From: a virus
DNA length: 64,000 nt
Direction: 5' to 3' (one strand)
IMG/VR virus record: IMGVR_UViG_3300045541_000131
Location: 1-64,000 of that record
The notes below the pieces were generated by a model. That model was not told the origin of the DNA and searched no databases. It was given only the letters and a program-made list of their open reading frames with translations. Made by a program: the position numbers and the translations under genes. Below are positions 1,451 through 61,760 of the stretch, one piece after another. Every line of letters begins with the position of its first letter. The first letter of the stretch is position 1.

Positions 1451-3520
1451 TCATTTGCTTGTAGCTCTGAATACTCCGTCCCAATCACTAGGCAAGTTAG
1501 CGTTACTCATTTCCTCAATACGCTCTAACCATAGGTCATAGTATTGATCCATGCCGCCATCGAAGTTACCTTTTAGCTCGTTTACTAACTGAATAGCTGC
1601 ACCCCAGTTTTGTCTGCGGTATTCAATCAACATTTGATTGTGCTGTTCCTTGGCAACTTTCCATTGAACTTTCTTAACTTCAGTATCAGGATTAAAGAAC
1701 ACCGTAAAGATTGTTACACCTTCTGTTTTACCTTTAACAGCAATACAATCTAGCTCTACAGTAAAGTATTCATTGCCCAATCGTTCAGCGGTAATGGGAC
1801 CTAATACTATAAGAACTCCGTAATTTTTACTCTGTCCTTCTAAACGACTAGCCAAATTAACAGCGTCGCCAAGGCAAGTATAGTCAAAGCGTTGCTCACT
1901 ACCCATATTACCAACCACAACAACACCAGTATTAATACCAATTCCCATGCCGAACGGAGGAACCCCTTCGCCTGATATCTCTTTATTAAATCCATCTAAA
2001 TCTCCCAGCATTTCTAACGCGGCTTTAACAGCATCTTTACAATGCTTGGTTTCGTCTAATGGTGCGTTCCAGAATGCCATCTGTGCGTCACCGATATACT
2101 TGTCTAATGTTCCCGAATTCTCAAGTATCTTACGAGTCATGGCAGTCATGTAACGGTTCATGATTTTTGTAAGACCTTGAACATCTTTACCGTAATGTTC
2201 ACTAATACTTGTGAAGCCGCGAACATCAGTAAACATAATTGACAGTTCTTTTTCTTCACCGCCTAGCTTTAGTAAACTAGGATCTTTAATTAGTTTAGCA
2301 ACTAGGTCTGGACTTAGGTAACTGCTAAACTGTTTCTTAATCTGTTGCTTGAGTAAGAACTCTGTAATAAACTTGCTGACATAAGCATGGAAAGCAACGA
2401 TTAACAAGCCCACGCTAAATGCTGTAGCATCAAACAAATACTGATATTCATGGTAAGCATACATACTAGCTGCTATGCTGCCATAGATAATAACACCAGT
2501 AGTAACGACACCAATATAAGTCCAACGCATTAAGAATATCATTAACACGCCGGCAATGAAAATACTAGCAATCTCAATATGGTCGGCATAAGTGCTACGC
2601 TGAATATTATGTTGATTTAGCATTGTGCCTATTAAAGTAGCTTGCATAGCCTGCGGCCATACTTCTCCTTGTGCTGTGGCCACAGGATTGATCAAGCCAG
2701 CAGCAGCTAGACCGACTACAACAATTCCGCCTTCAAAACTTTCGGGCAATTTAGCAAGGCTATGCTCCTGTGGTTTGTTTCGCCAGTCAATCCAAACACG
2801 GCTCAAATTGTCTGTTTCGATTTTACCTAACTTAGGAATACGCATAGCATCGACTCCTAAGTCGCCCACTTTAACTTGTACCTTAGAATCTTGTAGTGCC
2901 ACTCGAACTACTTCAGCAGCCAAGGCAGGGTGTACATTCTCGCCAGCTGCAATAACTAGAGGCATACGACGAACAACACCGTCGATCTCGGGAAATGTGT
3001 TAACAACACCTATGCCTGCGGCTCTTTCATTTAGAATATCTACAGAATTTATCAAGCCAGGATATTCTACAAACTTGCCTGCAGGATCTTGCCCGACTAA
3101 TTGTACAGCACTGCCGCGGTCTGTATTTTTTCCTTTAGTGCTGCCAACAGCAGGCAGCACAACAGGGTATTGTTCCAAAGTCTTTGCCAATGTGCCGTCT
3201 TGTTTGAATCTGTCAGCTTCGGGCATCAGCACATTGAATACAACTAGGCCGGCTTCTCGCTTGTATAACTCTTTAACAATGTCTGCGTAGGTATTTCTGG
3301 GAAAAGGAAACTGGCCATATTTGTCTAGACTATCTTCGTCGATATTTACTACATGTACAGGAGCATCTGCTTTTTCTTGGCTGGTAATTAGTTGATCAAA
3401 ATAACGAAGCCTAATGCTTTCTACAAAACTAGGATCCCAGAATCTTATAGCAACTATAACTACCAGTGTCACTAGTGCTATCCATGGATTTAAGTATATT
3501 TTTTTGGCTTCGTTTTTCAT
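1451..3520 (-). CDS. CHASE2-domain class III adenylate cyclase
   Basis: The protein has an N-terminal membrane anchor (residues 12-25), an extracytoplasmic CHASE2 sensor (about 30-310), three membrane segments (about 315-385) and a class III cyclase domain (about 425-600). Metal-binding aspartates are D432 (FTDVRGFT) and D478 (DKYIGD). K474 and T548 form the adenine-selecting pair seen in cyanobacterial-type cyclases, and N555 and R559 are the transition-state residues. All key residues are present, so active conversion of ATP to cAMP is expected. A late-type TAAATA and an AAGGA Shine-Dalgarno precede the start. The C-terminal 85 residues may be a coiled-coil or TPR-like extension. A complete membrane receptor cyclase is very unusual in a phage. 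Confidence 0.92.
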   Translation of the reverse strand: MKNEAKKIYLNPWIALVTLVVIVAIRFWDPSFVESIRLRYFDQLITSQEKADAPVHVVNIDEDSLDKYGQFPFPRNTYADIVKELYKREAGLVVFNVLMPEADRFKQDGTLAKTLEQYPVVLPAVGSTKGKNTDRGSAVQLVGQDPAGKFVEYPGLINSVDILNERAAGIGVVNTFPEIDGVVRRMPLVIAAGENVHPALAAEVVRVALQDSKVQVKVGDLGVDAMRIPKLGKIETDNLSRVWIDWRNKPQEHSLAKLPESFEGGIVVVGLAAAGLINPVATAQGEVWPQAMQATLIGTMLNQHNIQRSTYADHIEIASIFIAGVLMIFLMRWTYIGVVTTGVIIYGSIAASMYAYHEYQYLFDATAFSVGLLIVAFHAYVSKFITEFLLKQQIKKQFSSYLSPDLVAKLIKDPSLLKLGGEEKELSIMFTDVRGFTSISEHYGKDVQGLTKIMNRYMTAMTRKILENSGTLDKYIGDAQMAFWNAPLDETKHCKDAVKAALEMLGDLDGFNKEISGEGVPPFGMGIGINTGVVVVGNMGSEQRFDYTCLGDAVNLASRLEGQSKNYGVLIVLGPITAERLGNEYFTVELDCIAVKGKTEGVTIFTVFFNPDTEVKKVQWKVAKEQHNQMLIEYRRQNWGAAIQLVNELKGNFDGGMDQYYDLWLERIEEMSNANLPSDWDGVFRATSK

Positions 3521-6398: not shown

Positions 6399-6638
6399 TT
6401 ATGGTCGTTTAATCGGCAATCTGGCTCTGCTAGCAAAATTTAACTTCTTTAATTCTTCTTCTAGTCGACGCTGGTCTTCTAGTCGCTTTTCTTCTTCAGC
6501 TCGACGAGCCAAATAATCCTGATAACGCTCTTCTAATGTGCGTGACTTTATGCCCAATTCTTTTTGTAATTTTCTTGTTTGGGCTAATATCTTTTCGTAT
6601 CGTTGCTGTAACTCGTCTGGGAATAACTGTTCTGCCAT
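6399..6638 (-). CDS. Small coiled-coil protein
   Basis: The 79 residues are almost entirely charged helix, rich in Glu, Arg, Lys, Gln and Leu, with heptad-like spacing (residues 10-65). No signal peptide is present, unlike its operon neighbours, so it probably stays in the cytoplasm. It overlaps the stop of the curlin-repeat gene by one base and is the last gene of the curli-type operon. Function unknown; it could be a chaperone for an exported curlin-like protein, but nothing in the sequence proves this. Confidence 0.65.
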   Translation of the reverse strand: MAEQLFPDELQQRYEKILAQTRKLQKELGIKSRTLEERYQDYLARRAEEEKRLEDQRRLEEELKKLNFASRARLPIKRP

Positions 6639-8644
6639 TAACCCCCACCGCCTTGTGTTACACTAACGCTACAGCCCGATAAATTAGCACATTGTTGAGT
6701 AATACTGTATACTTGATTAGTGCTACCTTGTTGTAGCAATGTCAATGAACTGGCGCCACCAACATTGGCAAGATTGATAGTGGCTTTATGACTACCTGCT
6801 CCGGTTTGTGTAATATTTGCGCTATTACCATTGCCAGTCATAGTCAAATCTAAGAAGTGATTACCTGTGCCACTTTGTAAGATGGTTTCGTTGTTATTGT
6901 TACCTGTAATAGATATGAAAGCCAACTTTTCACCGTTGTTGCTTTGTGTAACTCTATGTGTACCTCCACTACCGGCCATCGTGTAATTTAAAAAATGTCC
7001 GCTGTTTGTACCACCGTCGTTGCCTTGTCGGAATATGTAAGTTCCTACATCACCGGTAATAGATACACGAGAAATATGACCGCCGCTTTCCGCACCGTCT
7101 TGTGCTCCTGTTGTAGTATTTCTAGCCTGACTTATAGTAACATTATTACCGTTGCCTTGAACTCTTAATTCAATAAGGTTTCTGCCACTAAGTGTATCGC
7201 CTTGTTTGATATCAACGGCTGTGCCAAAGCCAGCAACATGAGCATTAGTTCCTGCGCCGCCCAGACCCTGCACTCTGTTATAGTTACCTGTCTGTTCAAT
7301 TGTTACACTATTACCAGACCCGTCTGTATACAGGTCAATTCTGTTGCCTAATCCAATAGCATTTCTTCTTACACGAGCAGCATCTAATAAAGCCTGCTGA
7401 GCAGAAGTTATATTGCTACTAAAGCAATCACTACAAACGCTACCTGCTTGTCCTGGGTTAGCAGGAGTTCCACCCGATCCTGTATCAGTACTAGTGATAC
7501 CATCGTTTAAATCATAGTAATAGGTAACTTCAGCAATCTGCATACTATCGCAATTTAGACCGCATCCATCACCTGCCTTAGTTGTGGGGAATAAAATGAA
7601 GTAATAAACATAAGCTGTAGTGTTTGCTACAGTTATTTCGGGACTAGTCCAAAAACGAGTGTCACTTAATGTCAAAGTATCTTGTTTAATCAGTGTCCAG
7701 TTAACACCATCATTACTGCCATATAGTTTGTAACTGGTAGGATCACGACCAGGAAAGTCATTGGCAGTGGTAATGGTAAACTTTTGAACTACACGACCTT
7801 GACTTAACTTTACAGTAACACCTGCGTTCTTTTTATCAAAGTTCAAATACTTTGTGCTAGTGTTGCCATCAAAGGCATTGGCAGCACCTTCCCCGTTCGG
7901 ACTGTTATAAGTAGTGGGGTAGATATTGCTAATAACTACGGGGCTACTAGTTGTTCTAATAACTTGCCAATTGTTTGTTGCTGGTGGTTGAGGACAGTCA
8001 TTGGTACAACCTGTGGTAGCCGTTTGACTAGGTGCCGCCACAGTTTCGAATCCACTGCTACTAGGCAATGCACAGTTGCTGGGTGCCATAGATAAGTTTG
8101 TACATTGTCCAGCATAGACTCCTAACTGAACAGCGTTATTATCCACCACATTATTACTCATGGCGCTGAATGTTATGGTATATGTGGTGCCAGCAGTTAA
8201 TGTCACAGCTTGATAGATACTGTCAAAGCTGCCCACAGCGCCGTCGATCCATTGACCGTTACTCCACGTACCAGCAGCACTGGGATATATGCCACTTTGA
8301 TAACCTACGCCCCAAGCAGTAGGAGCATTAATATTAACTTGTCCATAATTGGCTGTGTTTACAGTTAAATTTCCGCCTGTAGTAAAATCAGGATTGGTTA
8401 ATAAGTTAGTAGTCTGCCCCTGAACAGTTAGTCGAGCATTGTCAAAGTACCAATAAGCAGGATCCTGTCTAAAGGCAAACATGATATATTGGCTACCACT
8501 AACAGTAGCAGTAAAGTTAAAACTGTATGTGGCCCACTGGTTAGCCGTATTGTTTTGAACTCTGCCAACCCAACCACTGGGCAATGTCTGTGCATGTGCA
8601 ATGGATGTTATGAACAAAAATAAAAATAAAAATATTTTTTTCAT
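6638..8644 (-). CDS. Secreted lectin-like protein with curlin repeats
   Basis: A signal peptide is clear (residues 1-18, ending AHA). Residues 20-190 form a carbohydrate-binding-like beta domain (W/Y-rich, VTLTAGTTYTITFSA). Residues 220-375 resemble an F5/8 type C (discoidin) domain, with AFDGNTSTKY and SYKLYGSNDGVNWTL. Residues 430-668 carry curlin-type repeats with recurring N-x-x-x-I-x-Q-x-G (for example NSVTIEQTGNYN, NSANITQTGAGS). It is therefore predicted to be exported through the CsgG pore and to form or cap an amyloid-like surface fibre that bears a glycan-binding head. Its ATG overlaps the FecR gene stop (ATGA). Confidence 0.8.
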   Translation of the reverse strand: MKKIFLFLFLFITSIAHAQTLPSGWVGRVQNNTANQWATYSFNFTATVSGSQYIMFAFRQDPAYWYFDNARLTVQGQTTNLLTNPDFTTGGNLTVNTANYGQVNINAPTAWGVGYQSGIYPSAAGTWSNGQWIDGAVGSFDSIYQAVTLTAGTTYTITFSAMSNNVVDNNAVQLGVYAGQCTNLSMAPSNCALPSSSGFETVAAPSQTATTGCTNDCPQPPATNNWQVIRTTSSPVVISNIYPTTYNSPNGEGAANAFDGNTSTKYLNFDKKNAGVTVKLSQGRVVQKFTITTANDFPGRDPTSYKLYGSNDGVNWTLIKQDTLTLSDTRFWTSPEITVANTTAYVYYFILFPTTKAGDGCGLNCDSMQIAEVTYYYDLNDGITSTDTGSGGTPANPGQAGSVCSDCFSSNITSAQQALLDAARVRRNAIGLGNRIDLYTDGSGNSVTIEQTGNYNRVQGLGGAGTNAHVAGFGTAVDIKQGDTLSGRNLIELRVQGNGNNVTISQARNTTTGAQDGAESGGHISRVSITGDVGTYIFRQGNDGGTNSGHFLNYTMAGSGGTHRVTQSNNGEKLAFISITGNNNNETILQSGTGNHFLDLTMTGNGNSANITQTGAGSHKATINLANVGGASSLTLLQQGSTNQVYSITQQCANLSGCSVSVTQGGGG

Positions 8645-9909
8645 CTGAATAACTGATTGATAACAATCTGTCCCTGTGGTTTGCCTGCACTAAAGTTCCA
8701 ACCATGTGTTTGCATGTCTTGTGTTATAACAATTTGAATCTGTGTATTCAAAGGCTGCACAATATTAGCATAGTTTCGGCTATTTGGGCTGAGGCTTTCG
8801 TAGCCCCATCCGGCTTGTTTTGTTTCGCTTTTATCGGTCCATATCTTTTTGAGGTATGGATTTTCTTTTTCTTTTTCAGGCTCAATGGTTGTAGTTGTGG
8901 TCGCAGTTGCAGCGGCTGTTGAAGCTGCTACTTCTTTATTTTCTACTTGTGCAATTGTGACTTCTGGTACTTTTGTAGTATCTTCTAATGCGGCAGCTAA
9001 GTCTGTTTTAACTGTAGTATCAGCTACAGCAGATTCAGTTTTTTCTTCTTGTTGTGCTTCGCCAGTTTGAGATTCTTGTGCTGCTGATTTACCAGAAGCT
9101 CGTCTAGCTACTCGCTTGTTGTCAGATGATTTTTTATCGGCAGTTTGTTTTTCTTCAGCAGGAGGATCTTTATCTTCTCGTTTATTTTCTTTTGTGGCAC
9201 CTGTAGCTGCGGCCGCTGCTCTGGCCGCTGCAACAACGCTGGCACCCGATGCTGTTCTTGGCGGTGATATCTGTAAATTGTTGCCAATGGCAGAACCGAA
9301 TAAATTTACAGTAATAGGAGGAGTCGGTGGTTGGCCAGCATTTTCAACTAGTGTAGCTTGATATGGTCTATTCATACTGACCATATTAGGACCGCTTTGT
9401 ACATCAATTGCCCCGCTACCGCAGACTAGACCTTTAACAGCACTGGTTTCCCAATCACATGTGGGCATAAGAATAACCATACTGCTGCCTATTTCATTGA
9501 CACTCATAATAAAGTCTGTGCCTCGGACGGCAATGGCCGCAGTGGGTGTATTAATTTTTACTTGCTTGGGATCTTTGGCAATAGCACCAGAAACATAACG
9601 AACTGTTCCACTGCCGGCCTTTAATCCTAAACTGCCTTTGCCGCTTTTTGGATCGTAGACGAAATCGTCAATAACTAAACTACTGTGTTCAGTGACGCTG
9701 ACTTGTGTGTCATCTTTAAAAACAATTTTTACTTTGCCGTTTTTGGTTTCTACTTTGTCGTTTTGCTCTACAACTGTACCTTTAGTAACAGCGATAGTTT
9801 CTTTGCCACGCTTAATGCTAGCTTGGCCCGATAATTCTGTTACCGAGCCAATGCTAGCAAGTGCAGGACCTGCAAGTAGACATCCCAACAACAGGGCAAT
9901 CAGCTTCAC
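8641..9909 (-). CDS. FecR-domain exported protein
   Basis: After a signal peptide (residues 1-18, ending ALA) a FecR domain spans about residues 20-140, with GSVTELSGQASIKRG, a KVETKNGKVKIVF block and PTAAIAVRGTDF. The middle third (residues 210-340) is low-complexity, rich in Ala, Lys, Glu and Thr. The last 60 residues (NPYLKKIW to the end) have alternating hydrophobic Q/I strands that may associate with curlin repeats. FecR domains are usually periplasmic ligand or scaffold domains. The position between two curlin-repeat genes suggests a role in fibre export or anchoring, which is an inference. Confidence 0.8.
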   Translation of the reverse strand: MKLIALLLGCLLAGPALASIGSVTELSGQASIKRGKETIAVTKGTVVEQNDKVETKNGKVKIVFKDDTQVSVTEHSSLVIDDFVYDPKSGKGSLGLKAGSGTVRYVSGAIAKDPKQVKINTPTAAIAVRGTDFIMSVNEIGSSMVILMPTCDWETSAVKGLVCGSGAIDVQSGPNMVSMNRPYQATLVENAGQPPTPPITVNLFGSAIGNNLQISPPRTASGASVVAAARAAAAATGATKENKREDKDPPAEEKQTADKKSSDNKRVARRASGKSAAQESQTGEAQQEEKTESAVADTTVKTDLAAALEDTTKVPEVTIAQVENKEVAASTAAATATTTTTIEPEKEKENPYLKKIWTDKSETKQAGWGYESLSPNSRNYANIVQPLNTQIQIVITQDMQTHGWNFSAGKPQGQIVINQLFR

Positions 9910-9919
9910 TGCTGACTCC

Positions 9920-10711
9920 TTAGTTCTTCTGAGTGATATTAAATGTGCCGCTGTTTGCTACACTCTTAATATTAAGAACACTGTCAACAGTACCAGTTTG
10001 ACTAACTGTAATGTTGTTATTGTTACCAGTTAGATCAATCCAAATACTAGAACCGGCTGCACCGCTGCTACGCTGATTGATGTTGAATGTGTTGGTATCA
10101 CCTAAAACTTTGATAGTTTGTGTGTGCTTGTCACCAATAACATCCATGAAGAAACTGTTGCTGTGACCTGTTACATCAACGCTGCTGGTTTGATCAGCAC
10201 CTGTACCACGATACTGTAATAGGTTGCTGTTGCCAGTGAACTTCCAGTTAGCATCAAAGCTGTTACAGCCTGTTAGAGCTGTACCACCTACGCTGGCTGT
10301 ACCATAGCCGCAAGCTGCATCAACAGTGTTGCTGTTGCCAATTTGTTGAACAGTAACAGTAGAACCCTTACCGGAACCTGTTGTGTCATTTACTACTTCT
10401 AGGTTGATTTCATTGTTGTTGCCAGTCTGTTTGGTAACAATAGTTTGATCAATACCACGAAGATAGATAGGACGAGCAGCACTACCTTGCTTGTTGCCGC
10501 TGCCTTCTTGTGTGACATTGACATTAGGGTTATTGCCGCTTTGGTCAATAAACACACGGTTGGTAGTTGTGTTAGCTAATGCTGTGGCAGCATTGGGGCT
10601 AACTGTAATCATTGTAGGAATTGTTGGCGCTGCTGGTGCAGTAACGGCGGTCTGTGCAAATGCACTTCCGTATACTCCGGCTAATGCCATTACTAATAGA
10701 ACCTTTTTCAT
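9920..10711 (-). CDS. CsgA-like curlin-repeat protein
   Basis: The 263-residue protein starts with a signal peptide (MKKVLLVMALAG ... AFA). It then has several curlin-type units with Gln/Asn-rich strands, such as NRVFIDQSGNN, NVNVTQEGSGN, QTIVTKQTGNNN, TVTVQQIGNSN and TFNINQR. These give alternate strand-turn patterns expected for a functional amyloid. One pair of cysteines is present (in DAACGYG and LTGCNS). Its start overlaps the csgG stop by four bases. It is the best candidate for the major fibre subunit. Repeat spacing is less regular than in Escherichia CsgA. Confidence 0.8.
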   Translation of the reverse strand: MKKVLLVMALAGVYGSAFAQTAVTAPAAPTIPTMITVSPNAATALANTTTNRVFIDQSGNNPNVNVTQEGSGNKQGSAARPIYLRGIDQTIVTKQTGNNNEINLEVVNDTTGSGKGSTVTVQQIGNSNTVDAACGYGTASVGGTALTGCNSFDANWKFTGNSNLLQYRGTGADQTSSVDVTGHSNSFFMDVIGDKHTQTIKVLGDTNTFNINQRSSGAAGSSIWIDLTGNNNNITVSQTGTVDSVLNIKSVANSGTFNITQKN

Positions 10712-11550
10712 TTGTCGCTCCTTTTTAAATCTGGAAGTTTAGGTGTTGCGGGATTTTCTTTAAACTTCCATAGATTCAGTCTTTCGCCTTTCTTGATCAA
10801 TTCAAGAACTGCTGTCTCAATAGCACTACGCAATGCGTAATTTCCCGGCTCGTTAAATGTTTGACTGCTGTCAAATTCAAATGCTCTAGTTGCTTGATTA
10901 AAGAATCTTAATGCAGTTACACCTTCACTAGTGCTGAGTAAATTCTTTTCAACGGTAACTGTGGTTAACACTTCACCTGTCTGAACACTGACTAGTCGAA
11001 GACTGATTACGACAATATCCTGTGTGTACTGTGTGTAAGGACCAATACCTAACCAACGAGCACCTGTGCCGCCTGTTAGTGTATTACTGTTATAGTCAAT
11101 GATACCGCCTTCTAAAATAACTCCAGCTAGAGTCATGGGAGGCAATAATTTTGCTTTGTCGCCTTCGTAGATTTCTCTAGTCTGACGAATCATTTGACGC
11201 TCTTTTAATAGATTGTCTAGACCAACACGCTCGACTACTGTGAACCATTGACGATTGCCTACTTCATTCAGGCTTTTAATCAAATATGCTTCAGCACCTT
11301 GTGTTACGGCTGTACTGAATGTGCTGAGTGTATTGCTAGGTTTGCGTTGACCGGTTAGATCCTTAAAACCATAAACTGCCACAGTAATTGGGGCGCCAGC
11401 TGGTGCCGGAGCAGATTCGAAATCTTTAACAATAGTTTTTGCTACAGTAGCTTCGTCTCCTCGGTTATAATCGCCTAGAGGTCTTACTGTACTGCATCCT
11501 GCTAGTGTTAAAGCTGCTAGTGTGATCAATGATAATTTTAATGCCTTCAT
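10708..11550 (-). CDS. csgG: CsgG-family curli secretion pore lipoprotein
   Basis: A lipoprotein signal ends in the lipobox LAGC (Cys19). The mature protein follows the CsgG pattern, with VAVYGFKDLTGQRKPS, FSTAVTQGAEAYLIKSL, WFTVVERVGLDNLLKERQMIRQ, GVILEGGIIDYNSNT and an RSAIETAVLELI C-terminal block. At 280 residues it matches bacterial CsgG, which forms a nonameric outer-membrane channel that exports curlin subunits. The gene sits directly downstream of csgF and upstream of a curlin-repeat gene. No csgE or csgB homologue is seen in the window. Confidence 0.92.
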   Translation of the reverse strand: MKALKLSLITLAALTLAGCSTVRPLGDYNRGDEATVAKTIVKDFESAPAPAGAPITVAVYGFKDLTGQRKPSNTLSTFSTAVTQGAEAYLIKSLNEVGNRQWFTVVERVGLDNLLKERQMIRQTREIYEGDKAKLLPPMTLAGVILEGGIIDYNSNTLTGGTGARWLGIGPYTQYTQDIVVISLRLVSVQTGEVLTTVTVEKNLLSTSEGVTALRFFNQATRAFEFDSSQTFNEPGNYALRSAIETAVLELIKKGERLNLWKFKENPATPKLPDLKRSDK

Positions 11551-11559
11551 AGTTTGTCC

Positions 11560-12030
11560 TTAGAATCCAAAACTTGCTATTGGTACTGTAACTGTAGTAA
11601 CAGTGCCTTTGGCATCAACTACTGTTAACACAACATGAGTTTCTGTTTTGCGCCATGTAACTGTGTTGCCATCTAATACAAATGATCCTGTGGTAGGATT
11701 AACACAGCCAGGTATTGGGCCGTCTAGGCCAGCACATCTGTTTTGGAATAGATTGTTACTTAACTGTGTGGCCAACTGGGCATATACTTGGCTTTGAAAC
11801 AGACTCATAAATCTGTTTAACGGTGTGTTTAGTATGTCTGCTTCTGCTTTAGCAATATCAGCTTTGCGCTGTGATTCGATAGCATCTCTGCGGCTCTTTT
11901 CGATACTATCAATAGTCAATGCATGACTACTCCAACCCTGGCCGCTAAAGGCTGGATTTTTAAATTGATGTACTAACTCTGCCGATGCCATGGCTGGCAC
12001 ACATAGAAGTAAACACAGAACCTTTTTCAT
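11560..12030 (-). CDS. csgF: CsgF-like curli assembly factor
   Basis: I start at ATG 12030 (MKKVLCLLL...) because a GGAG lies 6 bases before it and a signal peptide (to ASA) follows at once; the upstream ATG at 12060 adds ten non-signal residues. The mature N-terminus ELVHQFKNPAFSGQGW matches the CsgF segment that inserts in the CsgG pore. The C-terminal part with TETHVVLTVVDAKGTVTTVTV matches the CsgF beta region. It is the first gene of the operon, behind a late promoter at 12071-12076. Confidence 0.85.
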   Translation of the reverse strand: MKKVLCLLLCVPAMASAELVHQFKNPAFSGQGWSSHALTIDSIEKSRRDAIESQRKADIAKAEADILNTPLNRFMSLFQSQVYAQLATQLSNNLFQNRCAGLDGPIPGCVNPTTGSFVLDGNTVTWRKTETHVVLTVVDAKGTVTTVTVPIASFGF

Positions 12031-12070
12031 AAATGCTCCAAATAAATTGACTACTGTCATACGATAGTAG

Positions 12071-12076
12071 TATTTA
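12071..12076 (-). promoter_or_regulatory. Late promoter of the curli-type operon
   Basis: TAAATA on the minus strand, with a predicted start about 35 bases before the csgF ATG. No other clear promoter or terminator is visible down to 6399, so csgF through the coiled-coil gene are probably one late transcript. Confidence 0.6.
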
Positions 12077-12919: not shown

Positions 12920-13471
12920 ATGCTACGCATATTAAAATTTGTAATTGTAGTCATTGCTGCCATAGCCGTCGGCTGGGTGGCATATTGGGCTATCAGTTAT
13001 AAACTCAAACAACTTAAGGCTGCTGAGTCTCCGGAAATGAGTCAAGTCACTGCCGAAGTAAGAAACCGTCAACTCGAATGTTTGGCTAAGAACATTTACT
13101 ATGAAGCCGGCTATGAACCATTTGAAGGCAAAGTAGCTGTGGCACAGGTTACATTAAACAGAGTCGAAAGTGGCAAGTTCCCTAACGATGTTTGCAGAGT
13201 TATCTATCAAAAGAATGTTGTATACGATAAGGTAATTTGCCAGTTTAGTTGGTACTGCGAACAAAGCGGTGGACTCAAGCCCAAGCATCCGGCTGCTTAC
13301 AAGGAAAGCATGGAAGTAGCCAAAAAGGTCCTACTGGAAGGATTCAGACTACCCAGTCTAAGCAATGCGATTTATTTTCACGCAGAGCATGTCAACCCAG
13401 GATGGAATAAAGAAAAGATTGCCAAAATTGGCCGTCATATCTTTTACAGTGATAACCCAGGAAAAAAGTAA
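12920..13471 (+). CDS. SleB/CwlJ-type cell-wall hydrolase, membrane-anchored lysin
   Basis: A hydrophobic N-terminal anchor (residues 5-28) is followed by a Hydrolase_2 (SleB/CwlJ) domain. Key blocks are NIYYEAGYEPFEGKVAVAQV, the conserved glutamate in YYEAG, NRVESGKFPNDVC, CQFSWYC and a terminal FHAEHVNPGW ... IGRHIFY block. This family cleaves peptidoglycan glycan strands. An N-terminal anchor fits signal-arrest-release export, so it is the probable phage endolysin. A strong AAAGGAGG ribosome site precedes it. It is followed by a three-helix membrane protein with no gap. Confidence 0.85.
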   Translation: MLRILKFVIVVIAAIAVGWVAYWAISYKLKQLKAAESPEMSQVTAEVRNRQLECLAKNIYYEAGYEPFEGKVAVAQVTLNRVESGKFPNDVCRVIYQKNVVYDKVICQFSWYCEQSGGLKPKHPAAYKESMEVAKKVLLEGFRLPSLSNAIYFHAEHVNPGWNKEKIAKIGRHIFYSDNPGKK

Positions 13472-14042: not shown

Positions 14043-14378
14043 ATGACTAAAAATCAGGCCTATTGGAATAGTAGTAAATTTTGTTGGGAAATAGTAGTTA
14101 CTGAACCAGCGGGAGATAGGTATGAACAAGTTATCAAACACGCCAATGCTGCTAGCCAAATGCTCAAAGACCAGGGCGTAAAATACATCGATGCTTACAT
14201 CAAAGTACAGCCAGATGTTCAGTTTATATTAATCACAGACTTTGATTGGTACATCAAAAATGAAAAAGAAATTTTTGATTGGGCTAAAGAAAGCAATATC
14301 AATGTTCGATTAAACGGAATGATATTAGAATTTTCAAGCAATGAAGACAAAATGATGTTTATGCTAAGGTGGCAATGA
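14043..14378 (+). CDS. Small protein ahead of the SUF operon
   Basis: This 111-residue protein is of mixed alpha/beta character and ends in [12 protein letters not shown], a motif shared with the preceding gene and the gene at 28749. Its stop overlaps the sufB ATG by one codon position (ATGA), so it leads the SUF operon and may share the late promoter at 14032. It has no cysteines besides one near the N-terminus, so it is unlikely to be an iron-sulfur carrier. Function unknown. Confidence 0.6.
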
Positions 14379-15790
14379 AAGAATTAGAACAAGAATACAC
14401 AGCTGGGTGGAGTTCGGACATAGATACTGAACTGCTAGGACGAGGCCTAAATGAAAACACAGTCAGACTAATCAGCAGTAAGAACAACGAACCCCAGTGG
14501 CTATTGGCATGGAGACTAGAAGCCTTAAATAAGTTAAAGGAACTCAAAGAACCCAACTGGGCGGAACTCGACTATGATAGACCCAATTACGATGAGATCT
14601 ATTATCACAGCCGTCCCAAGAAGTTGGCCGCGAGCCTTGAGGAGGTTGATCCAGAGATTCTTGCTGACTTTGAGCGTCTTGGAATACCCTTGCATGAACG
14701 AGCAACCTTGGCGGGGGTGGCAGTAGATGCTGTTTACGACAGCGTCAGTATTGGCACTACCTACAAAGAAAAACTAGCAGAAGAAGGTATTATCTTTTGT
14801 AGCTTTAGTGAAGCAGTACAAGAACATCCTGAACTAGTAAAAGAATATCTCGGCACAGTTGTTACACAAAAAGACAATTGGTTTGCCTGCATTAACTCAG
14901 CAGTATTCAGCGACGGTAGTTTTGTTTATATACCGCCAGGTAAGCGTTGTCCACTAGAACTCAGCACTTACTTTAGAATCAACAGCGCCAACAGTGGCCA
15001 GTTTGAGCGCACATTAATTATAGCAGACAAGGACAGTTATGTATCTTATTTGGAGGGATGTACGGCACCCAAACGTGACGAGAATCAACTACATGCCGCA
15101 GTCGTCGAACTTGTTGCCCTTGATAGGGCCGAAATCAAATATTCGACTGTACAAAACTGGTACCCAGGAGACGACCAAGGCCGCGGAGGTATCTACAACT
15201 TTGTTACCAAACGCGGGCGGTGTCGTGGTGAACGGAGTAGAATTAGTTGGACTCAAGTGGAAACAGGATCAGCTGTCACTTGGAAATACCCTAGTTGCAT
15301 ACTCCAAGGTCGTGAATCCGTGGGAGAGTTTTACTCAGTGGCCGTTACCAAAGGCCGCCAACAGGCCGACACTGGTACGAAAATGATTCATATTGGTGAA
15401 GGCACTCGCAGTAAGATTATCAGTAAAGGTATCAGTTTAGGTAATAGCAGCAACACCTATAGAGGTTTGGTGCGTATGGCACCTACTGCTAAAAATGCTC
15501 GCAACTTCACACAATGTGACAGCCTAATGATTGGCAACAATAGCCGTGCCAATACTATTCCCTATACTGAAATCAATAACGACTCTGCTCAAATAGAACA
15601 CGAAGCCACTACGGGTCAAGTCAGTGAAGAAGAATTATATTATTTGGCAACACGCGGCTTGTGTCCTGAACAAGCAGCCAGTATAATAGTAAATGGCTTT
15701 TGTCGCAGCGTGTTGAATACCTTGCCCTTGGAGTTTGCCGCCGAAGCCAATAAGCTACTAAGTGTACAGATGGAAGGCAGTATTGGATGA
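14375..15790 (+). CDS. sufB: SufB, iron-sulfur cluster scaffold subunit
   Basis: The 471 residues match SufB along the whole length, including [53 protein letters not shown] (Cys229), [27 protein letters not shown] and the C-terminal [17 protein letters not shown]. SufB with SufC and SufD builds [Fe-S] clusters. ATG 14375 is preferred over GTG 14369 because AAGGTGG precedes it. By eye, the Cys usually found in the G-x-x-C-G-A-H-T-x-P-Y block is Ser390 here ([12 protein letters not shown]) and the His is Asn. That Cys is important in Escherichia SufB, so the cluster-forming chemistry may differ. Confidence 0.93.
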
Positions 15791-16578
15791 TCACATTTAT
15801 TTCTTACATACCCGGAGCTCGAGGAAAGTTTGTTGCAGAATTATGTCAACTATCCATGACCACCGGAGAAGTCTACGGAAATCCAACCAGCGCCGGCGGA
15901 AACATAACATGGATCAATTTCATTCAACATGATTTAGAAAAATTAGGAATTCAATGGACTGATGTGCATCATCTCGATCCCGAGCATGAAAAGTATAAGT
16001 TTTATATTGACAGCATAAGTTCATGTTTATCTAAATTTGAGAATAACAACTTTTTCGTAGATACTCATTATCTCTTAAAAGACACACTGGAATATGCATT
16101 GAGTCAAGGTCATAAGGTCATAAGAATTGTTGTTAGTAATCATAAGCAATACGAGCAAATAAACAATCATTTTTTTTACAAAAACTTTGTTTCTACTTTA
16201 AGTGACGATCAAAAAAGATTAGACCTGGCCAAAAGAATTGTCGAGCAATCAGAGCATGGACCATATCGATTAAAGTTAAACCTAGTTCGAGATCAATTCG
16301 ATCTACCACTCAACCGCTGGAATATAGAAGCACTAACAATTTTATATAAACTTTGCGGGGAGTTTTTTAAAATTCAAAAGCCTAATATCATAACGCATGA
16401 GAATTTACTCGAAGTCGAGTACGATAGCCTCTTGAATTTTGAAAATGTTAATAGAATAATAAATTTTGTCGGTGGCGAATTTAATGATCATGTAAAAAAA
16501 CGATTCGATACCTATGTCGCAGAACAAAATAAAATACCCCCATTTGATGTTTACATAAACGAATTTACAAAATGTTGA
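15787..16578 (+). CDS. Sulfotransferase-like protein inside the SUF operon
   Basis: The 263-residue product begins [19 protein letters not shown], a P-loop-like strand-loop-helix start resembling 3'-phosphoadenosine-binding loops of phage sulfotransferase-like proteins. Related glycine-rich starts occur in the genes at 42937, 46802 and 62294. It overlaps sufB by four bases (ATGA) and sufC by seven. It has no similarity to any Suf protein, so its place in the operon is odd. The sequence is more AT-rich than its neighbours, which suggests a later insertion. Substrate unknown. Confidence 0.6.
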
Positions 16579-17234
16579 AAATTACAAACTTAACTGCCAA
16601 AATACAGGATAAAGAAATACTGCATGGCATTAACTTAGACCTGATTCCTGGTCAGTGCCTCTTAATAACAGGACACAATGGCAGTGGTAAAAGTACATTG
16701 CTACATACCATTATGGGCAGACCCGACATCGAATCCAATGGATATATCGATTATAATGGTCTAGCACTGCAAGCCATGGCTTGTCATGAACGAGCACAAA
16801 AAGGTGTGTTTATGTTTCATCAAGCACCGCCTACCATCGACGGCGTCAATACCATGACCCTGTTAAATGAAATTAACAATCTGCAAAATAATAAATTATC
16901 CCGGCGAGAGTTAATTGATAATGCTAAACGAATGTTTGCCGATGTCAATTTACCTTCAGACTGGACCAAGCGAACTTTTAATTCAGGTGCCAGTGGAGGC
17001 GAACGTAAAAAGAACGAACTAATTCAAGCTGAATTATTTGCCGGTGGCCTATTATTATTAGATGAACCTGACAGTGGCTTAGAACAGGCCAGCAGACAAC
17101 GAATTATTGATCTTATTGCTAAGAACAGCAAGCAGGGCGGGATTACTTTGTTAGTTACACATGATCGCGACTTGCAGAGTATCTACATGAAAAATCATAT
17201 TGAGCTAGAAAATGGTCAAATCGTTAGACGTTAA
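16572..17234 (+). CDS. sufC: SufC, ABC ATPase of the SUF complex
   Basis: A compact 220-residue ABC ATPase with Walker A GHNGSGKST, Q-loop FMFHQAPPTIDG, signature SGASGGERKKNEL and Walker B LLLLDEPDSGLE, followed by the H-loop VTHD. The ERKKNELIQ pattern after the signature is characteristic of SufC. It powers structural change in SufB-SufC-SufD. It is about 30 residues shorter than most bacterial SufC. It overlaps the next gene (short SufD) by 23 bases. Confidence 0.93.
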   Translation: MLKITNLTAKIQDKEILHGINLDLIPGQCLLITGHNGSGKSTLLHTIMGRPDIESNGYIDYNGLALQAMACHERAQKGVFMFHQAPPTIDGVNTMTLLNEINNLQNNKLSRRELIDNAKRMFADVNLPSDWTKRTFNSGASGGERKKNELIQAELFAGGLLLLDEPDSGLEQASRQRIIDLIAKNSKQGGITLLVTHDRDLQSIYMKNHIELENGQIVRR

Positions 17235-17682
17235 ACGACTCTGCGAAGATATGGATAAAGTGAACATGCACTTTGCCACCGTATCAACTGATCAAACTCA
17301 GACGATTGATATTTGCATAGTGCAAACTGAAGGTACATGCGACGCCAGTATTATTATTGAACCTTTGCCCTATACAAAAAGTAAGATTACCATCAACATA
17401 TTTGCCGAAGGCACTGCTCGAGTAAATTGTGTTTGTAACTTAGTAGTACCAAAAGAAGTAGAGGGTGTGGAAACAGACATACAAATGCGTAGCTGGCCTT
17501 TTGATCGAAGTAAAATTTCTTCTAGGCCTGAAATGTTTATTGCCAATAGTAATGTAAAAGCTGCACACGGCAACGCCCTGGGAACTCTTAAACCCGCCGA
17601 ACAATATTATCTAAAAACGAAAGGCATTGATAATTACAAAGATTTGATTAAACAAAGCCTAATAGAATATGCCAACTCTTAA
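17212..17682 (+). CDS. sufD: Short SufD-like protein (C-terminal half only)
   Basis: The 156 residues match only the C-terminal part of SufD: the SSRPEMFIANSNVKAAHGNALG block holds the conserved His (SufD His360-type) and is followed by AEQYYLKTKGI. Full SufD has more than 400 residues with a long beta-helix, mostly missing here. There is no room for a lost N-terminal half, because sufC lies directly upstream, so this is a true minimal form and not a frameshift. The residues needed to bind SufB and complete the Fe-S site are kept. It overlaps sufC by 23 bases and sufS by 14. Confidence 0.78.
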   Translation: MVKSLDVKRLCEDMDKVNMHFATVSTDQTQTIDICIVQTEGTCDASIIIEPLPYTKSKITINIFAEGTARVNCVCNLVVPKEVEGVETDIQMRSWPFDRSKISSRPEMFIANSNVKAAHGNALGTLKPAEQYYLKTKGIDNYKDLIKQSLIEYANS

Positions 17683-18868
17683 AAATCGTTTTCCATTCTT
17701 TACACATAATCCAGATTCGATCTATTTGGACAGTGCTGCTACCTCGCAGGTCTTGGATAGTGTAATCGAGGATCAAAGAAATTTTGATCTCTACTGTCGA
17801 GCAAACGCACATCGCAGTGGTCACAAAATGGGTGCTTTTGCTGACCATCAATATCATCTGGCTAAAAGAGTTATCGGCGAATGGCTAGGCCTCGAAGATG
17901 CCGAAGACAGCATTATATTCAATAGCGGAACCACACAGGGTTTATATGATGCTGTGGCAATGATTCAGCAAGAATTCAGCAGAGCCACAATTTATGTTGG
18001 CGCCGACAGCCATCACAGTCTTTATGTTCCTCTAAGAATGCTAGCATTCAACAGTAGTTTTTTTAAGTTAAAATTAATTGATGTCGATGACAATGGTAGA
18101 CTGGATTTAGACAAGCTAGAAGAAGAATTACACAAAAACAAAGAACCGAAAATTATTGCCTGTACTGCTGTCAGCAATGTATTGGGGATGGTCAATGATT
18201 TAGAAAGAATTAAGACTCTGGCAAAAATTCATGGCTGTACTACTATACTAGATGCCAGCCAAATAATTTCTAAAAGAAAGTTTGATCCTACAGGCTTTGA
18301 CTTTGTTGCCTGGTCATGGCATAAAATTTATGGACCAATGGGCCTAGGCTGTTTGTATTTAGGCAGCAGATGGCGTAAGAATGAACCTATCAGACCAGGC
18401 GGCGGTAGTGTCATTCAGGTTGACTATGATAACATTGTTTGGCAAACAACTGCTGGCAGATTTGAAAGTGGAACACAAAATTTAAGTGCGATTGTTAGTA
18501 TTCCCAAACTAGTCGAATGGTTAATGGCAAATGCCGATGAAATAGAACGGCACGACAGGCATTTGGCTCAATTAGTTAATCAGCATGTTTCTGCAACAAT
18601 GTTTAGAGCTGTCACTGAATCAGAGTCGGGCTTGCTTTGCTTAGAACCTGCAATTGGTGCAGTTGAAGATTACGGTCTTATGTTGGATGCTAAAAATATT
18701 ATGGTTCGTACTGGTAAACTTTGTGCTGAACCTATAGTCAGCAAGTTAACAAAAAATAAATCATTGATTAGAATTAGTTGGGCCGCCTATACTCAAAATA
18801 AAGATGTGGAGCTAGTTTTTGATGTGTTGGGACAAATTCATGAAAGACTTCAGAGAACTATTCGATGA
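17669..18868 (+). CDS. sufS: SufS-type cysteine desulfurase
   Basis: This 399-residue class V aminotransferase-fold enzyme has YLDSAATSQ at the start, the PLP lysine in WSWHKIYGPMG, and an aspartate-x-x-glutamine motif in LDASQ. The catalytic loop cysteine is in TGKLCAEP, at the place of the Escherichia SufS Cys364. It removes sulfur from cysteine as a persulfide and passes it to SufE. All catalytic residues appear intact. It is in the SUF operon and overlaps sufE by 29 bases. Confidence 0.92.
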   Translation: MPTLKNRFPFFTHNPDSIYLDSAATSQVLDSVIEDQRNFDLYCRANAHRSGHKMGAFADHQYHLAKRVIGEWLGLEDAEDSIIFNSGTTQGLYDAVAMIQQEFSRATIYVGADSHHSLYVPLRMLAFNSSFFKLKLIDVDDNGRLDLDKLEEELHKNKEPKIIACTAVSNVLGMVNDLERIKTLAKIHGCTTILDASQIISKRKFDPTGFDFVAWSWHKIYGPMGLGCLYLGSRWRKNEPIRPGGGSVIQVDYDNIVWQTTAGRFESGTQNLSAIVSIPKLVEWLMANADEIERHDRHLAQLVNQHVSATMFRAVTESESGLLCLEPAIGAVEDYGLMLDAKNIMVRTGKLCAEPIVSKLTKNKSLIRISWAAYTQNKDVELVFDVLGQIHERLQRTIR

Positions 18869-19214
18869 TTTGTTGGTGTTAGAAGATCCAATGGATAAGT
18901 ACGAGTGGATCATTGACTATGGTTTCAATACCACAGAGCTCGACATCAAATACCGTACAGATGCTAACTTGGTTCGTGGTTGTACTAGTCCTCTTTGGGT
19001 TGTCAAAGTCAATAACAGACTGCAAGCACAAGGTGACAGTAGCATAGTCAATGGTATTGCTGCAATGATCTGTGACTGGTATAACCAAGCCAACGAAGAA
19101 CAACGAAAAGAATTATCCTTGGCAATGTTAGAAAGTATCGGGCTTGCACCATTGCTAAGTATGGGTCGCCAAAATGGTGTTGCTAATCTAATTAAAACTA
19201 TTCAAACTTTATAA
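18840..19214 (+). CDS. sufE: SufE-like sulfur acceptor
   Basis: I start at ATG 18840 (MKDFRELFDDLL), as the upstream ATG at 18819 adds residues that only repeat the end of sufS in another frame. The active-site cysteine is in NLVRGCTSPLWV, matching the SufE V-x-G-C-x-S-x-x-W block. The C-terminal ending (GLAPLLSMGRQNGV) is typical of the family. It accepts persulfide sulfur from SufS and donates it to SufB. Confidence 0.9.
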   Translation: MKDFRELFDDLLVLEDPMDKYEWIIDYGFNTTELDIKYRTDANLVRGCTSPLWVVKVNNRLQAQGDSSIVNGIAAMICDWYNQANEEQRKELSLAMLESIGLAPLLSMGRQNGVANLIKTIQTL

Positions 19215-19573
19215 TGTACGACGATATTAAAGATCGAATCATTGCTAATCTAAAAGGCGTATATGATCCGGAAATTCCAGTAAACATCTACGACTTAGGG
19301 CTTATATATGACTTGTATGTTGACGATAAAGATGTTAAAATCACCATGACTTTAACTAGTGCATTTTGTCCTAGTGCTGAAGAAATTCCACAAGAGGTGC
19401 ATTGGCAAGCGGAAAATGCTGTTAAAGAGTTAAATACTACTAGAACTGTATCAGTAGATGTGGTTTTTGATCCCCCTTGGACACCCGATCGTGTCAGCGA
19501 GGAGGCTCGTTTAGAAATGGGAATGTATGATTATGATCAAGAAAATTCTAGATTGGATCCTTGGCAAGAATGA
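19214..19573 (+). CDS. sufT: SufT-like protein (MIP18/DUF59 family)
   Basis: The 119 residues carry the DUF59 pattern: GVYDPEIPVNIYDLGLIYDL, the TMTLTSAFCPSAEEIP cysteine block, and FDPPWTPDRVSEEAR. Proteins of this family help insert Fe-S clusters into target proteins. The start overlaps the sufE stop by one base (TAATG). The last part overlaps the following gene by 47 bases. Confidence 0.88.
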   Translation: MYDDIKDRIIANLKGVYDPEIPVNIYDLGLIYDLYVDDKDVKITMTLTSAFCPSAEEIPQEVHWQAENAVKELNTTRTVSVDVVFDPPWTPDRVSEEARLEMGMYDYDQENSRLDPWQE

Positions 19574-19865
19574 CTCGGGTTCGACGACAACCGCGCATCC
19601 GTTAGATGGTGCAACACGCACAGCACAAGAACGTGCCGAAGCGCCTTATAAAATTGAAACTACAACTGTAACCGTTGTTGAAACTCCAGTAGTTGAAACT
19701 CCAGTAGTTGAAACTCCAGTAGTTACCGTTAAGGCCAAATACAAGAAAGCTGATCTTAACAAAATGACTAAGAAAGAATTGCTTGACTTAGCAGCTCAGC
19801 ATGGTGTAGCAGTCAAGGCTCGTGCAGCCAAAGCTGATCTAGTAAAGACACTAAGCAAGGTATGA
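19527..19865 (+). CDS. Small protein with SAP/HeH-like C-terminal domain
   Basis: The 112-residue product has a short hydrophobic N-terminus, a Thr/Val-rich linker with a VETPV unit three times, and a C-terminal helix-extension-helix-like region (ADLNKMTKKELLDLAAQHG ... KADLVKTL). That region resembles SAP or Rho-N motifs and is often DNA- or RNA-binding. It overlaps the SufT-like gene by 47 bases and the A-type carrier by 4. An alternative ATG lies at 19533. Why it sits in the SUF operon is unclear. Confidence 0.6.
   Translation: MIMIKKILDWILGKNDSGSTTTAHPLDGATRTAQERAEAPYKIETTTVTVVETPVVETPVVETPVVTVKAKYKKADLNKMTKKELLDLAAQHGVAVKARAAKADLVKTLSKV
19677..19721 (+). repeat. Three perfect 15-bp tandem repeats
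   Basis: The unit GTTGAAACTCCAGTA occurs three times in a row and encodes the VETPV repeat in the linker of the SAP-like protein. Copy number could vary by slippage without changing the frame. Confidence 0.9.
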
Positions 19866-20194
19866 CCATATTAGATATTTCCGAAGAAGCAAAAGCTCAC
19901 ATTATATCAATGTTAGAACGTGCCGGCATGCCGGCAGTTGAGCTTAAATTAGAGCCACAGGGTTGCAATGGATATAAGTATATCTGGAATCCTGTAAGCT
20001 CCGCTTCCGGAGATAATCTAGTAAATTTACAAGATAGTTATTATGTAATTATCAGTAAGCAAGTATTGCCATTCGTCATTGACAGTCAAGTAAAATTAGA
20101 AAAATCTTCGTTAATGGGCACTCGACTAGTGTTGGTCAATCCTCATGAAGCTGGCGCTTGTGGCTGCGGTGAAAGTGTTAATTTCAAACAATGA
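19862..20194 (+). CDS. sufA: A-type iron-sulfur carrier (SufA/IscA-like)
   Basis: The 110-residue protein has the three-cysteine pattern of A-type carriers: one Cys in LEPQGCNGYKY and a C-terminal ACGCGES motif, 68 residues later. Such proteins take clusters from the SufBCD scaffold and deliver them to apo-proteins. It closes the SUF set, overlaps its upstream gene by 4 bases and its downstream gene by 4 bases. Confidence 0.9.
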   Translation: MTILDISEEAKAHIISMLERAGMPAVELKLEPQGCNGYKYIWNPVSSASGDNLVNLQDSYYVIISKQVLPFVIDSQVKLEKSSLMGTRLVLVNPHEAGACGCGESVNFKQ

Positions 20195-23482: not shown

Positions 23483-24130
23483 ATGTCTGTTATTTCCTAT
23501 AAAAACTATGCCTATCTAAAAGGACCCAAAGGCGACCGCGGACCCAAAGGCGACAAAGGCGACCGCGGTCCAGCCGGTGATTCTGGGGTATTATCTGCCA
23601 CCGGAAGAATTTTGTATGATTCTAGCGCCAAAGTTATTTCCTTTGATTCTACTGGCCTGGCCTCTGAAACTTATGTTAATAGTGCTATTAGTAATTTAAT
23701 TGACTCGGCGCCTACACTATTAAACACTCTAAATGAACTAGCAGCAGCATTAGGTGATGATCCTAATTTTGCCAGCTCTGTGGTCTTAAAGACTGGTTCA
23801 ACAATGACAGGTTTTTTAACACTTAGTAGCGATCCTACTAGTGCATTACACGCAGCCACTAAACAATATGTTGATAACTCAATCAACTCTTTGCCTTCAA
23901 GCACCGACGAACTAACCGAAGGATCAACAAATCTCTATTATACTACTGCCAGAGCCAGATCTGCTATTAGTGCCAGCGGATCTTTAAGTTATAACAGCAG
24001 CACTGGTGTTATCAGTTATACTGCACCCGAATTGGCTACAATAGCAACAACTGGCAGCTATAATGATTTATTAGATGTTCCTGGCGATCTATTAACTGAT
24101 TCTAGCATATTAGACGGCGGCACCTTCTAA
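23483..24130 (+). CDS. Short tail-fibre protein with collagen-like repeat
   Basis: The 215 residues begin with a collagen-like G-x-y run (GPKGDRGPKGDKGDRGPAGD, residues 14-33). The middle has LLNTLNELAAALGDDPNFAS, a block seen in many phage tail fibres, then LHAATKQYVD. The C-terminal half contains LTEGSTNLYYTTARARSAIS and YNSSTGVISYT, which recur in the large fibre at 30491. It is a late gene behind TAAATA and AAGGA. It may be a fibre subunit or an adaptor for receptor binding. Confidence 0.78.
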   Translation: MSVISYKNYAYLKGPKGDRGPKGDKGDRGPAGDSGVLSATGRILYDSSAKVISFDSTGLASETYVNSAISNLIDSAPTLLNTLNELAAALGDDPNFASSVVLKTGSTMTGFLTLSSDPTSALHAATKQYVDNSINSLPSSTDELTEGSTNLYYTTARARSAISASGSLSYNSSTGVISYTAPELATIATTGSYNDLLDVPGDLLTDSSILDGGTF

Positions 24131-35601: not shown

Positions 35602-36102
35602 ATGCCTAAATTAGATGAAGACGATTTCGTAGACCCAGGTAATTTACCTCCTATTGCAGGACCAAAAAATCCTCCTCCAGCCGGACTTGCTAGTCCTAGT
35701 GGTATGGGCGGTGGTATGAGCATGGGCGGTGGTTTTGGTAGTGGCACAACAAACATTGGCCAACAATTTAACGCTGCACCACAAATGGATCGCAATGCTG
35801 GTGGTGCTAACGCTGCACAAGGTGCTGATGTTTTAGTTAAACACAGCAAAGAAAGCGAAGACTGGATTAACAAAAAATGGCGTCCAGTAATGGGTTGGGT
35901 ATATATGGCTACATGTACCGCCGACTTTGTGTTATTCCCTGTTCTATGGAGTGCATTACAGGCACTTAGCCATGGTTCAGTAAATACACAATGGAATCCA
36001 ATTACGCTACAAGGTGCTGGACTTTACCATATTGCCATGGGTGCCGTACTTGGTATTGCAGCCTACGGTCGTACTAAAGAGAAACTTGAAAGCAAGCAAT
36101 AA
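35602..36102 (+). CDS. Holin of the 3TM type
   Basis: A proline/glycine-rich N-terminus (residues 1-55) precedes a membrane part with KKWRPVMGWVYMATCTADFV, FPVLWSALQAL and TLQGAGLYHIAMGAVLGIAAY. This matches the 3TM holin family first described for gene transfer agent release. An AAGGAAG ribosome site precedes the ATG. It is the best holin candidate in the window. Confidence 0.8.
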   Translation: MPKLDEDDFVDPGNLPPIAGPKNPPPAGLASPSGMGGGMSMGGGFGSGTTNIGQQFNAAPQMDRNAGGANAAQGADVLVKHSKESEDWINKKWRPVMGWVYMATCTADFVLFPVLWSALQALSHGSVNTQWNPITLQGAGLYHIAMGAVLGIAAYGRTKEKLESKQ

Positions 36103-45009: not shown

Positions 45010-45018
45010 GGAGAAAAA

Positions 45019-54342: not shown

Positions 54343-54527
54343 AAACAATACACTGGTTCTATTTTGTATCAGCTCTTTGCGTAACATTTTTCGCAGGCTT
54401 AGTCTTAGGCATGATTGCCATGCGAGATTTTATGGCCGAAGAATTTATTGTTATAGATCCTGAAAAACTTCAGCACTATCGTCAGATTCATGAACCTGTA
54501 AAAAAATCTCAAGGAATGACAGCATGA
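54339..54527 (+). CDS. Small single-pass membrane protein
   Basis: The 62 residues have one membrane helix (residues 5-27, WFYFVSALCVTFFAGLVLGM) and a short polar end. It is coupled to both neighbours by ATGA overlaps. Unlike its neighbours it has no tag. It could anchor a partner in the host membrane, but no proof exists. Confidence 0.62.
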   Translation: MKTIHWFYFVSALCVTFFAGLVLGMIAMRDFMAEEFIVIDPEKLQHYRQIHEPVKKSQGMTA

Positions 54528-56639: not shown

Positions 56640-56645
56640 TATATT

Positions 56646-57983: not shown

Positions 57984-58014
57984 TTTCAATTTAAAATAAT
58001 CGAACAAAATTGAC

Positions 58015-58020
58015 TAAATA
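58015..58020 (+). promoter_or_regulatory. Late promoter giving a leaderless mRNA (gene at 58026)
   Basis: TAAATA, five bases (ATACT), then ATG. Confidence 0.6.
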
Positions 58021-58025
58021 ATACT

Positions 58026-59385: not shown

Positions 59386-59388
59386 ATT

Positions 59389-61748: not shown

Positions 61749-61760
61749 AGCGAGCCAGCA

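What the first reader, a model, noticed from the sequence alone, without database searches (positions are those of the whole stretch)
6399..12076. A late curli-type secretion operon in a phage
csgF, csgG, a CsgA-like protein, a FecR-domain protein and a 668-residue protein with lectin-like domains and curlin repeats form one minus-strand unit behind a late TAAATA. csgGF genes are, as I recall, known in a few phages, but a set that also holds its own curlin-like subunit with carbohydrate-binding and discoidin-like domains appears new. Possible roles: coat infected cells, make dying cells clump or trap hosts, glue virions to cell debris, or open a pore at lysis. csgE and csgB are missing.
Basis: partly seen in the sequence, partly recalled or inferred. 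Interest (0 to 1): 0.78.

Follow-up and report, generated by a model that had tools for sequence, protein, structure and literature searches.

The report
Phage curli with swappable adhesin heads
A large T4-like phage carries a late-expressed curli (amyloid secretion) gene set, a kind already reported in marine phages, in which one amyloid protein bears a sugar-binding-type head that related phages swap like a tool bit, so infected cells probably display sticky fibres on their surface.

Summary
In detail: csgF, csgG, a CsgA-like curlin, a FecR-domain protein, a 668-aa curlin with an F5/8C domain and a small coiled-coil ORF form one minus-strand unit behind a T4-type late TAAATA. The claim that the set is new is mostly wrong. 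The same order csgF-csgG-curlin-FecR-curlin2-adenylate cyclase was described in pelagiphages (PMC9599517), lies in the HTVC008M and Melnitz records, and occurs in 51 of 54 distinct IMG/VR loci. The cyclase is here too (1451-3520).

What appears new is the second curlin ('CurB'). Its C-terminal curlin part is a fixed anchor. Its N-terminal heads (F5/8C, PA14 and at least five unnamed modules) are shuffled between phages: heads 91-93% identical sit on cassettes whose other proteins are 27-51% identical. In one phage the heads sit on an autotransporter-type barrel in the same cassette instead. Even HTVC008M's 'hypothetical' gp018 is PA14 plus curlin. Anchor swapping argues that the heads act on the surface of the infected cell.

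Best explanation: a late surface-adhesion system (capture of neighbours or particles, or masking of receptors), not a lysis pore. Fibre formation, binding and benefit are untested. The structure predictor was closed, so no fold was obtained.

The parts
11560..12030 (-). csgF (listed ORF runs to 12060; start at 12030 preferred): signal peptide, then ELVHQFKNPAFSG.., like the N-terminal peptide of CsgF
   Evidence: Pfam CsgF 1.3e-11; PHROG 35372 2e-34; RBS read from sequence
12070..12076 (-). T4-type late promoter motif TTAAATA upstream of csgF
   Evidence: 19 of 81 window genes against 3.0 expected; 85 of 130 relatives
10708..11550 (-). csgG, outer-membrane lipoprotein pore (lipobox LAGC)
   Evidence: Pfam CsgG 5.9e-49; solved CsgG chains, best E 8.8e-44 over residues 9-265
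9920..10711 (-). CsgA1: secreted 263-aa curlin subunit
   Evidence: Curlin_rpt 6.2e-7, two stretches; present in 54 of 54 distinct loci
8641..9909 (-). FecR-domain protein with signal peptide, variable linker and a C-terminal [IV]x[IV]xQ strand
   Evidence: FecR 4.9e-10; C-terminal Gln419 kept in at least 90% of 25 diverse phages
6638..8644 (-). CurB: 668-aa adhesin-curlin fusion; head 1 'JR1' 19-205, F5/8C head 219-385, curlin anchor 406-668
   Evidence: Pfam; module map; family profile matches GH92 enzyme 7nsn 1.1e-25 (F5/8C-type region) and curlin 8c50 4.3e-7
6399..6638 (-). 79-aa charged coiled-coil ORF overlapping the CurB stop; homologues only in a few relatives (L008, L033)
1451..3520 (-). 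CHASE2-class III adenylate cyclase, usual sixth member of the cassette, with its own TAAATA
   Evidence: Pfam CHASE2 2e-36 and Guanylate_cyc 3.9e-20; near the cassette in 53 of 54 distinct loci
12920..13471 (+). SleB-type cell-wall hydrolase next to the cassette (in some relatives between CurB and the cyclase); possible partner for pore insertion or lysis
   Evidence: Pfam Hydrolase_2 9.2e-25; positions in relatives

Best explanation
A late-expressed, phage-encoded surface-adhesion system built on type VIII (curli) secretion. [quoted passage not shown] CsgA1 is secreted and polymerises into a cross-beta fibre. CurB joins the fibre through its C-terminal curlin part and presents an N-terminal glycan-binding-type head outside the cell. 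The FecR protein is a secreted or periplasmic partner whose C-terminal strand may dock on the curlin stack; it is not a classical ferric-citrate regulator. Heads are exchanged between phages as ligands change, as with tail fibres. The likely pay-off is holding neighbouring hosts or particles close at the time of lysis, or covering receptors against competitors. Shown by sequence: gene content, order, late promoter, signal peptides, homology of the two curlins, modularity and horizontal transfer of heads, and an autotransporter-type barrel as an alternative anchor. Inferred: secretion, fibre formation, ligand binding, benefit, and the roles of FecR and the cyclase.
For: Cassette conserved: among 54 distinct CsgG loci all have CsgF, CsgA1 and FecR, 52 CurB, 53 the cyclase, 51 in the same order and strand. 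CurB and CsgA1 C-tails are homologous (hhalign E 4.4e-9). CurB architectures combine ITDL, FTDI, JR1, FESG, YNAI, PAMN or PA14 modules with optional F5/8C and a curlin anchor; 18 of 85 are anchor only. Pairs with CsgG about 85-92% and anchor about 79-91% identical can have unrelated heads (about 23-34%); L034/L035 have identical CsgG, 99% anchor, but differ by one F5/8C module. L013 against L136/L152: head 91-93%, F5/8C 70-72%, but CsgG 51%, CsgA1 27-30%, FecR 34%, anchor 33-37%. In phage contig L240 CurB is anchor only and the same heads sit on a 787-aa barrel protein between CurB and the cyclase; its barrel matches that of L241 (E 6e-49), which is a Pfam Autotransporter (9.6e-15); the contig has phage structural genes. 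HTVC008M gp018 is PA14 plus curlin.
Against: Buchholz et al. saw no clumping of OM43 cells infected with Melnitz, which has this cassette (PMC9004378). CurB has ten cysteines and folded-type heads that CsgG must pass unfolded, and no E. coli-type N-terminal secretion signal was recognised. CsgE was not found. Three of the four head-bearing barrel proteins are on contigs where no CsgG was found. FecR-tail similarity to curlin is not significant (E 0.06). Loci come from searches seeded with this cassette, so frequencies are biased.
Confidence: 0.55

Rival explanations
1. Lysis or permeability device: CsgGF is a pore opened late to depolarise the membrane or release contents (proposed for Melnitz, PMC9004378).
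For: Late promoter; SleB-type hydrolase beside the cassette; no CsgE gate found.
Against: CsgG sits in the outer membrane; the window has a separate predicted holin at 35602-36102; this does not explain conserved curlins, FecR or swapped adhesin heads.
Confidence: 0.1
2. Superinfection exclusion or coat: the fibres hide receptors or trap competing phages on the infected cell, and the heads bind the cell's own or rival surface glycans (a possibility raised in PMC9599517).
For: Same surface-display evidence as the best explanation; a coat could be made before lysis.
Against: Exclusion is usually most useful early, whereas the promoter is late-type; head swapping is expected under both readings.
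Confidence: 0.2
3. Uptake or nutrient channel (cofactors, iron), with FecR and the cyclase as regulators (raised in PMC7029224 and PMC9599517).
For: CsgG-type pore without CsgE; FecR domain present.
Against: FecR here begins with a signal peptide and shows no N-terminal anti-sigma region (sequence); no TonB-dependent receptor was noticed beside it; does not explain curlins or heads.
Confidence: 0.05
4. Virion or debris glue: CurB and CsgA1 coat released virions or lysis debris, as an extracellular version of adhesive tail or head fibres.
For: Late expression; a weak match of the F5/8C region to a phage tail-protein family (7.9e-5).
Against: The curlins, CsgF and FecR have signal peptides; the same heads sit on an outer-membrane-type barrel in L240, which points to the cell surface.
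Confidence: 0.1

Closest known systems
Pelagiphage type VIII secretion cassette (Wittmers et al. 2022, PMC9599517; HTVC008M, Melnitz)
   Same: Same gene order csgF-csgG-curlin-FecR-curlin-adenylate cyclase, no csgE; homologous proteins.
   Different: Here in a T4-like phage whose clamp loader is nearest PA5oct-like jumbo Pseudomonas phages (54%); the second curlin carries F5/8C and another large head. The paper's main text does not contain lectin, carbohydrate or adhesin.
Bacterial curli operons (E. coli csgBAC/csgDEFG; Erythrobacter-type)
   Same: CsgG, CsgF and curlin-repeat subunits.
   Different: No csgE found; FecR and CHASE2 cyclase added. Bacterial operons with the nearest CsgG (L082-L110, excluding phage-like contigs) lack FecR and cyclase, and seven large curlins from them have repeats only.
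Type V autotransporter adhesins
   Same: The same head modules occur on autotransporter-type barrels in related viral contigs.
   Different: In the window the anchor is curlin, not a barrel.

Membership tests
Type VIII secretion (curli) system | CsgG lipoprotein pore | tested here: met
   Pfam 5.9e-49; solved CsgG over residues 9-265, lipobox Cys19; the alignment keeps the Phe of the constriction loop but not the Tyr
Type VIII secretion (curli) system | CsgF with conserved N-terminal peptide | tested here: met
   Pfam 1.3e-11 over 15-160
Type VIII secretion (curli) system | Secreted curlin-repeat subunit(s) | tested here: met
   Curlin_rpt in both proteins; CurB profile matches curlin structure 8c50, 4.3e-7
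Type VIII secretion (curli) system | CsgE secretion factor (absent from Alphaproteobacteria too, PMC3521004) | tested here: not met
   No match in the 138,652-base record, E. coli control positive; the record may be a fragment
Type VIII secretion (curli) system | Amyloid fibre formation | not testable with these tools
Pelagiphage T8SS cassette | Order csgF-csgG-curlin-FecR-curlin-(cyclase) | tested here: met
FecR ferric-citrate regulator | Inner-membrane anti-sigma architecture with FecI and FecA partners | tested here: not met
   Signal peptide at the N terminus and FecR domain at 51-144; no partner genes seen beside it
Class III adenylate cyclase | Catalytic metal-binding and transition-state motifs | tested here: met
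   Motifs FTDVRGFT, DKYIGD and NLASRLEG align with 6fht; activity untested

The most novel reading that the evidence does not exclude
Lytic phages run an exchangeable adhesin-display platform on dying hosts: interchangeable sugar-binding heads mounted on amyloid curlin or on autotransporter anchors from the same cassette, traded between distant phages, to hold the next host close at lysis.
Probability: 0.35. Interest if true: 0.82.

Novelty: new variant of a known kind. Interest (0 to 1): 0.6.

Why it matters
The role of phage curli genes is an open puzzle, with pore, uptake and 'sibling capture' ideas unresolved in the papers read here. Finding that one subunit is a head-swapping adhesin, also in cultured HTVC008M, and that the heads can move to an autotransporter-type anchor, points to infected-cell adhesion and gives a single gene to test in an existing phage-host pair.

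Tried and rejected
Novelty of the whole cassette: rejected, already published. Bacterial origin of a FecR-cyclase pair: among 35 bacterial cyclase loci two had a FecR-type ORF and only one of these was directly upstream; flanks were short, so left open. FecR tail as a curlin repeat: same register as curlin but E 0.06, so only a suggestion. A simple strand-pattern count for curlin rungs was not informative for CsgA1. Host: TctC best plasmid matches only 25-28%, host undetermined. Head JR1 alone found no further viral contig; heads were not found in other window genes. Contigs labelled Flavobacteriaceae, Flavobacteriales, Sphingobacteriales and Rhodobacteraceae (L085, L103, L105, L107) carry phage-type cassettes or genes and were judged misbinned phage.

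Full report
Observation. Pfam confirms CsgF, CsgG, FecR, curlin repeats in two proteins and an F5/8C domain in the 668-aa protein. Neighbouring genes overlap by 4 bp or are a few bp apart. The TAAATA motif is enriched upstream of window genes (19 of 81 against 3.0 expected) and precedes csgF in 85 of 130 relatives. The record is a 138,652-base viral contig with a T4-type DNA polymerase and a predicted holin; its clamp loader is closest to PA5oct-like jumbo Pseudomonas phages, 54%. The contig may be a fragment and the host is unknown.

Known or new. CsgG has relatives at 46-50% identity in Pelagibacter phage HTVC008M and Methylophilales phage Melnitz. Both records hold csgF, csgG, a curlin, a FecR protein, a second protein with curlin repeats and an adenylate cyclase in that order. 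Wittmers et al. (PMC9599517) described this set in pelagic podo- and myoviruses; Zaragoza-Solas et al. (PMC7029224) and Buchholz et al. (PMC9004378) described csgGF. Buchholz et al. stated that csgA and csgB are lacking in Melnitz, although its record annotates two curlin-repeat proteins. The cassette as such is therefore known. In the window its sixth member, a CHASE2 cyclase, lies at 1451-3520, separated by a 2OG-Fe(II) oxygenase, an LpxH-like phosphoesterase and a glycosyltransferase.

Conservation. Two IMG/VR scans gave, after removal of identical CsgG, 54 loci with enough flank: CsgF, CsgG, CsgA1 and FecR in all, CurB in 52, cyclase in 53, and 51 with the same order and strand. Bacterial operons with the nearest CsgG, mostly Erythrobacter and relatives, lack FecR and cyclase, in agreement with PMC9599517.

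The second curlin is a modular adhesin. The window protein has a signal peptide, an unnamed head (19-205), an F5/8C head (219-385) and a curlin anchor (406-668). A profile of its family matches a GH92 mannosidase (7nsn, 1.1e-25) and a domain of an alpha-N-acetylglucosaminidase family protein (4a42, 3.1e-4) over the F5/8C part, and the curlin 8c50 (4.3e-7) over the anchor. Across 85 distinct CurB proteins the anchor is combined with at least seven alternative N-terminal modules with or without F5/8C, or stands alone (18 cases); one module is PA14, and HTVC008M gp018 also has PA14 plus curlin. Relatives with CsgG at 85-92% identity can have unrelated heads on similar anchors. Conversely L013 and L136/L152 share a head at 91-93% identity while the remaining cassette proteins are 27-51% identical. 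This is module transfer between distant phages.

Second anchor. A scan with the commonest head (ITDL) gave 28 loci: 24 are CurB-type proteins of the cassette and four are larger proteins ending in a beta-barrel-like tail. One of these (L241) matches Pfam Autotransporter at 9.6e-15, and the barrel of L240 is 35% identical to it, E 6e-49. L240 lies inside a phage curli cassette whose own CurB has no head; the ITDL and F5/8C heads sit on the barrel protein in the same slot before the cyclase. Its contig encodes CsgG, ribonucleotide reductase, a tail-spike-like protein and a virion structural protein. A barrel anchor makes sense only in the outer membrane of the infected cell, which is the main reason to prefer surface display over virion or lysis roles. 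This step is an inference from domain context.

FecR. The protein has a signal peptide, a FecR domain near the N terminus, an unalignable linker and a short conserved C-terminal strand with Gln419 kept in at least 90% of 25 divergent phages. In register it resembles the end of CsgA1, but the profile comparison is not significant (E 0.06). I read it as a periplasmic or secreted partner; its function is open.

Mechanism and rivals are stated in their sections. The adhesion reading is held at 0.55, of which neighbour capture is only part; Melnitz cultures showed no clumping.

Noticed in passing
14369-20194, + strand: A near-complete SUF iron-sulphur cluster operon in a phage: SufB, SufC-type ATPase, SufS-type aminotransferase and further SufE/SufT/SufA-like ORFs (by eye).
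   Followed up: partly
49378-62246, + strand: At least eight genes in this stretch share an N-terminal tag like M[KR]LxELxE (8 of 87 genes, 0 of 391 internal Met). It looks like the T4 capsid-targeting sequence of injected head proteins; the same tag was seen in small ORFs between CurB and the cyclase in L004, L034 and L035.
   Followed up: partly
43570-46092, + strand: TctA-type tripartite tricarboxylate transporter (Pfam 3e-90) followed by a TctC-like binding protein in a phage.
   Followed up: partly
L211-L213 (G000 84001-138652): Many radical SAM-like proteins clustered in the rest of the record; three of three tested match Pfam Radical_SAM, others by eye.
   Followed up: partly
L025 14065-16890: The cyclase gene is split by a 251-aa ORF that looks like a GIY-YIG homing endonuclease.
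   Followed up: no
740-1447 and 23483-24130: Fatty-acid desaturase (Pfam 9.2e-16) and a collagen-like repeat protein in the phage.
   Followed up: no
L040 13486-16365: A 959-aa secreted protein ending in a barrel-like tail lies between CurB (PA14 head) and the cyclase, so that this phage may carry both anchors; no Pfam match.
   Followed up: partly
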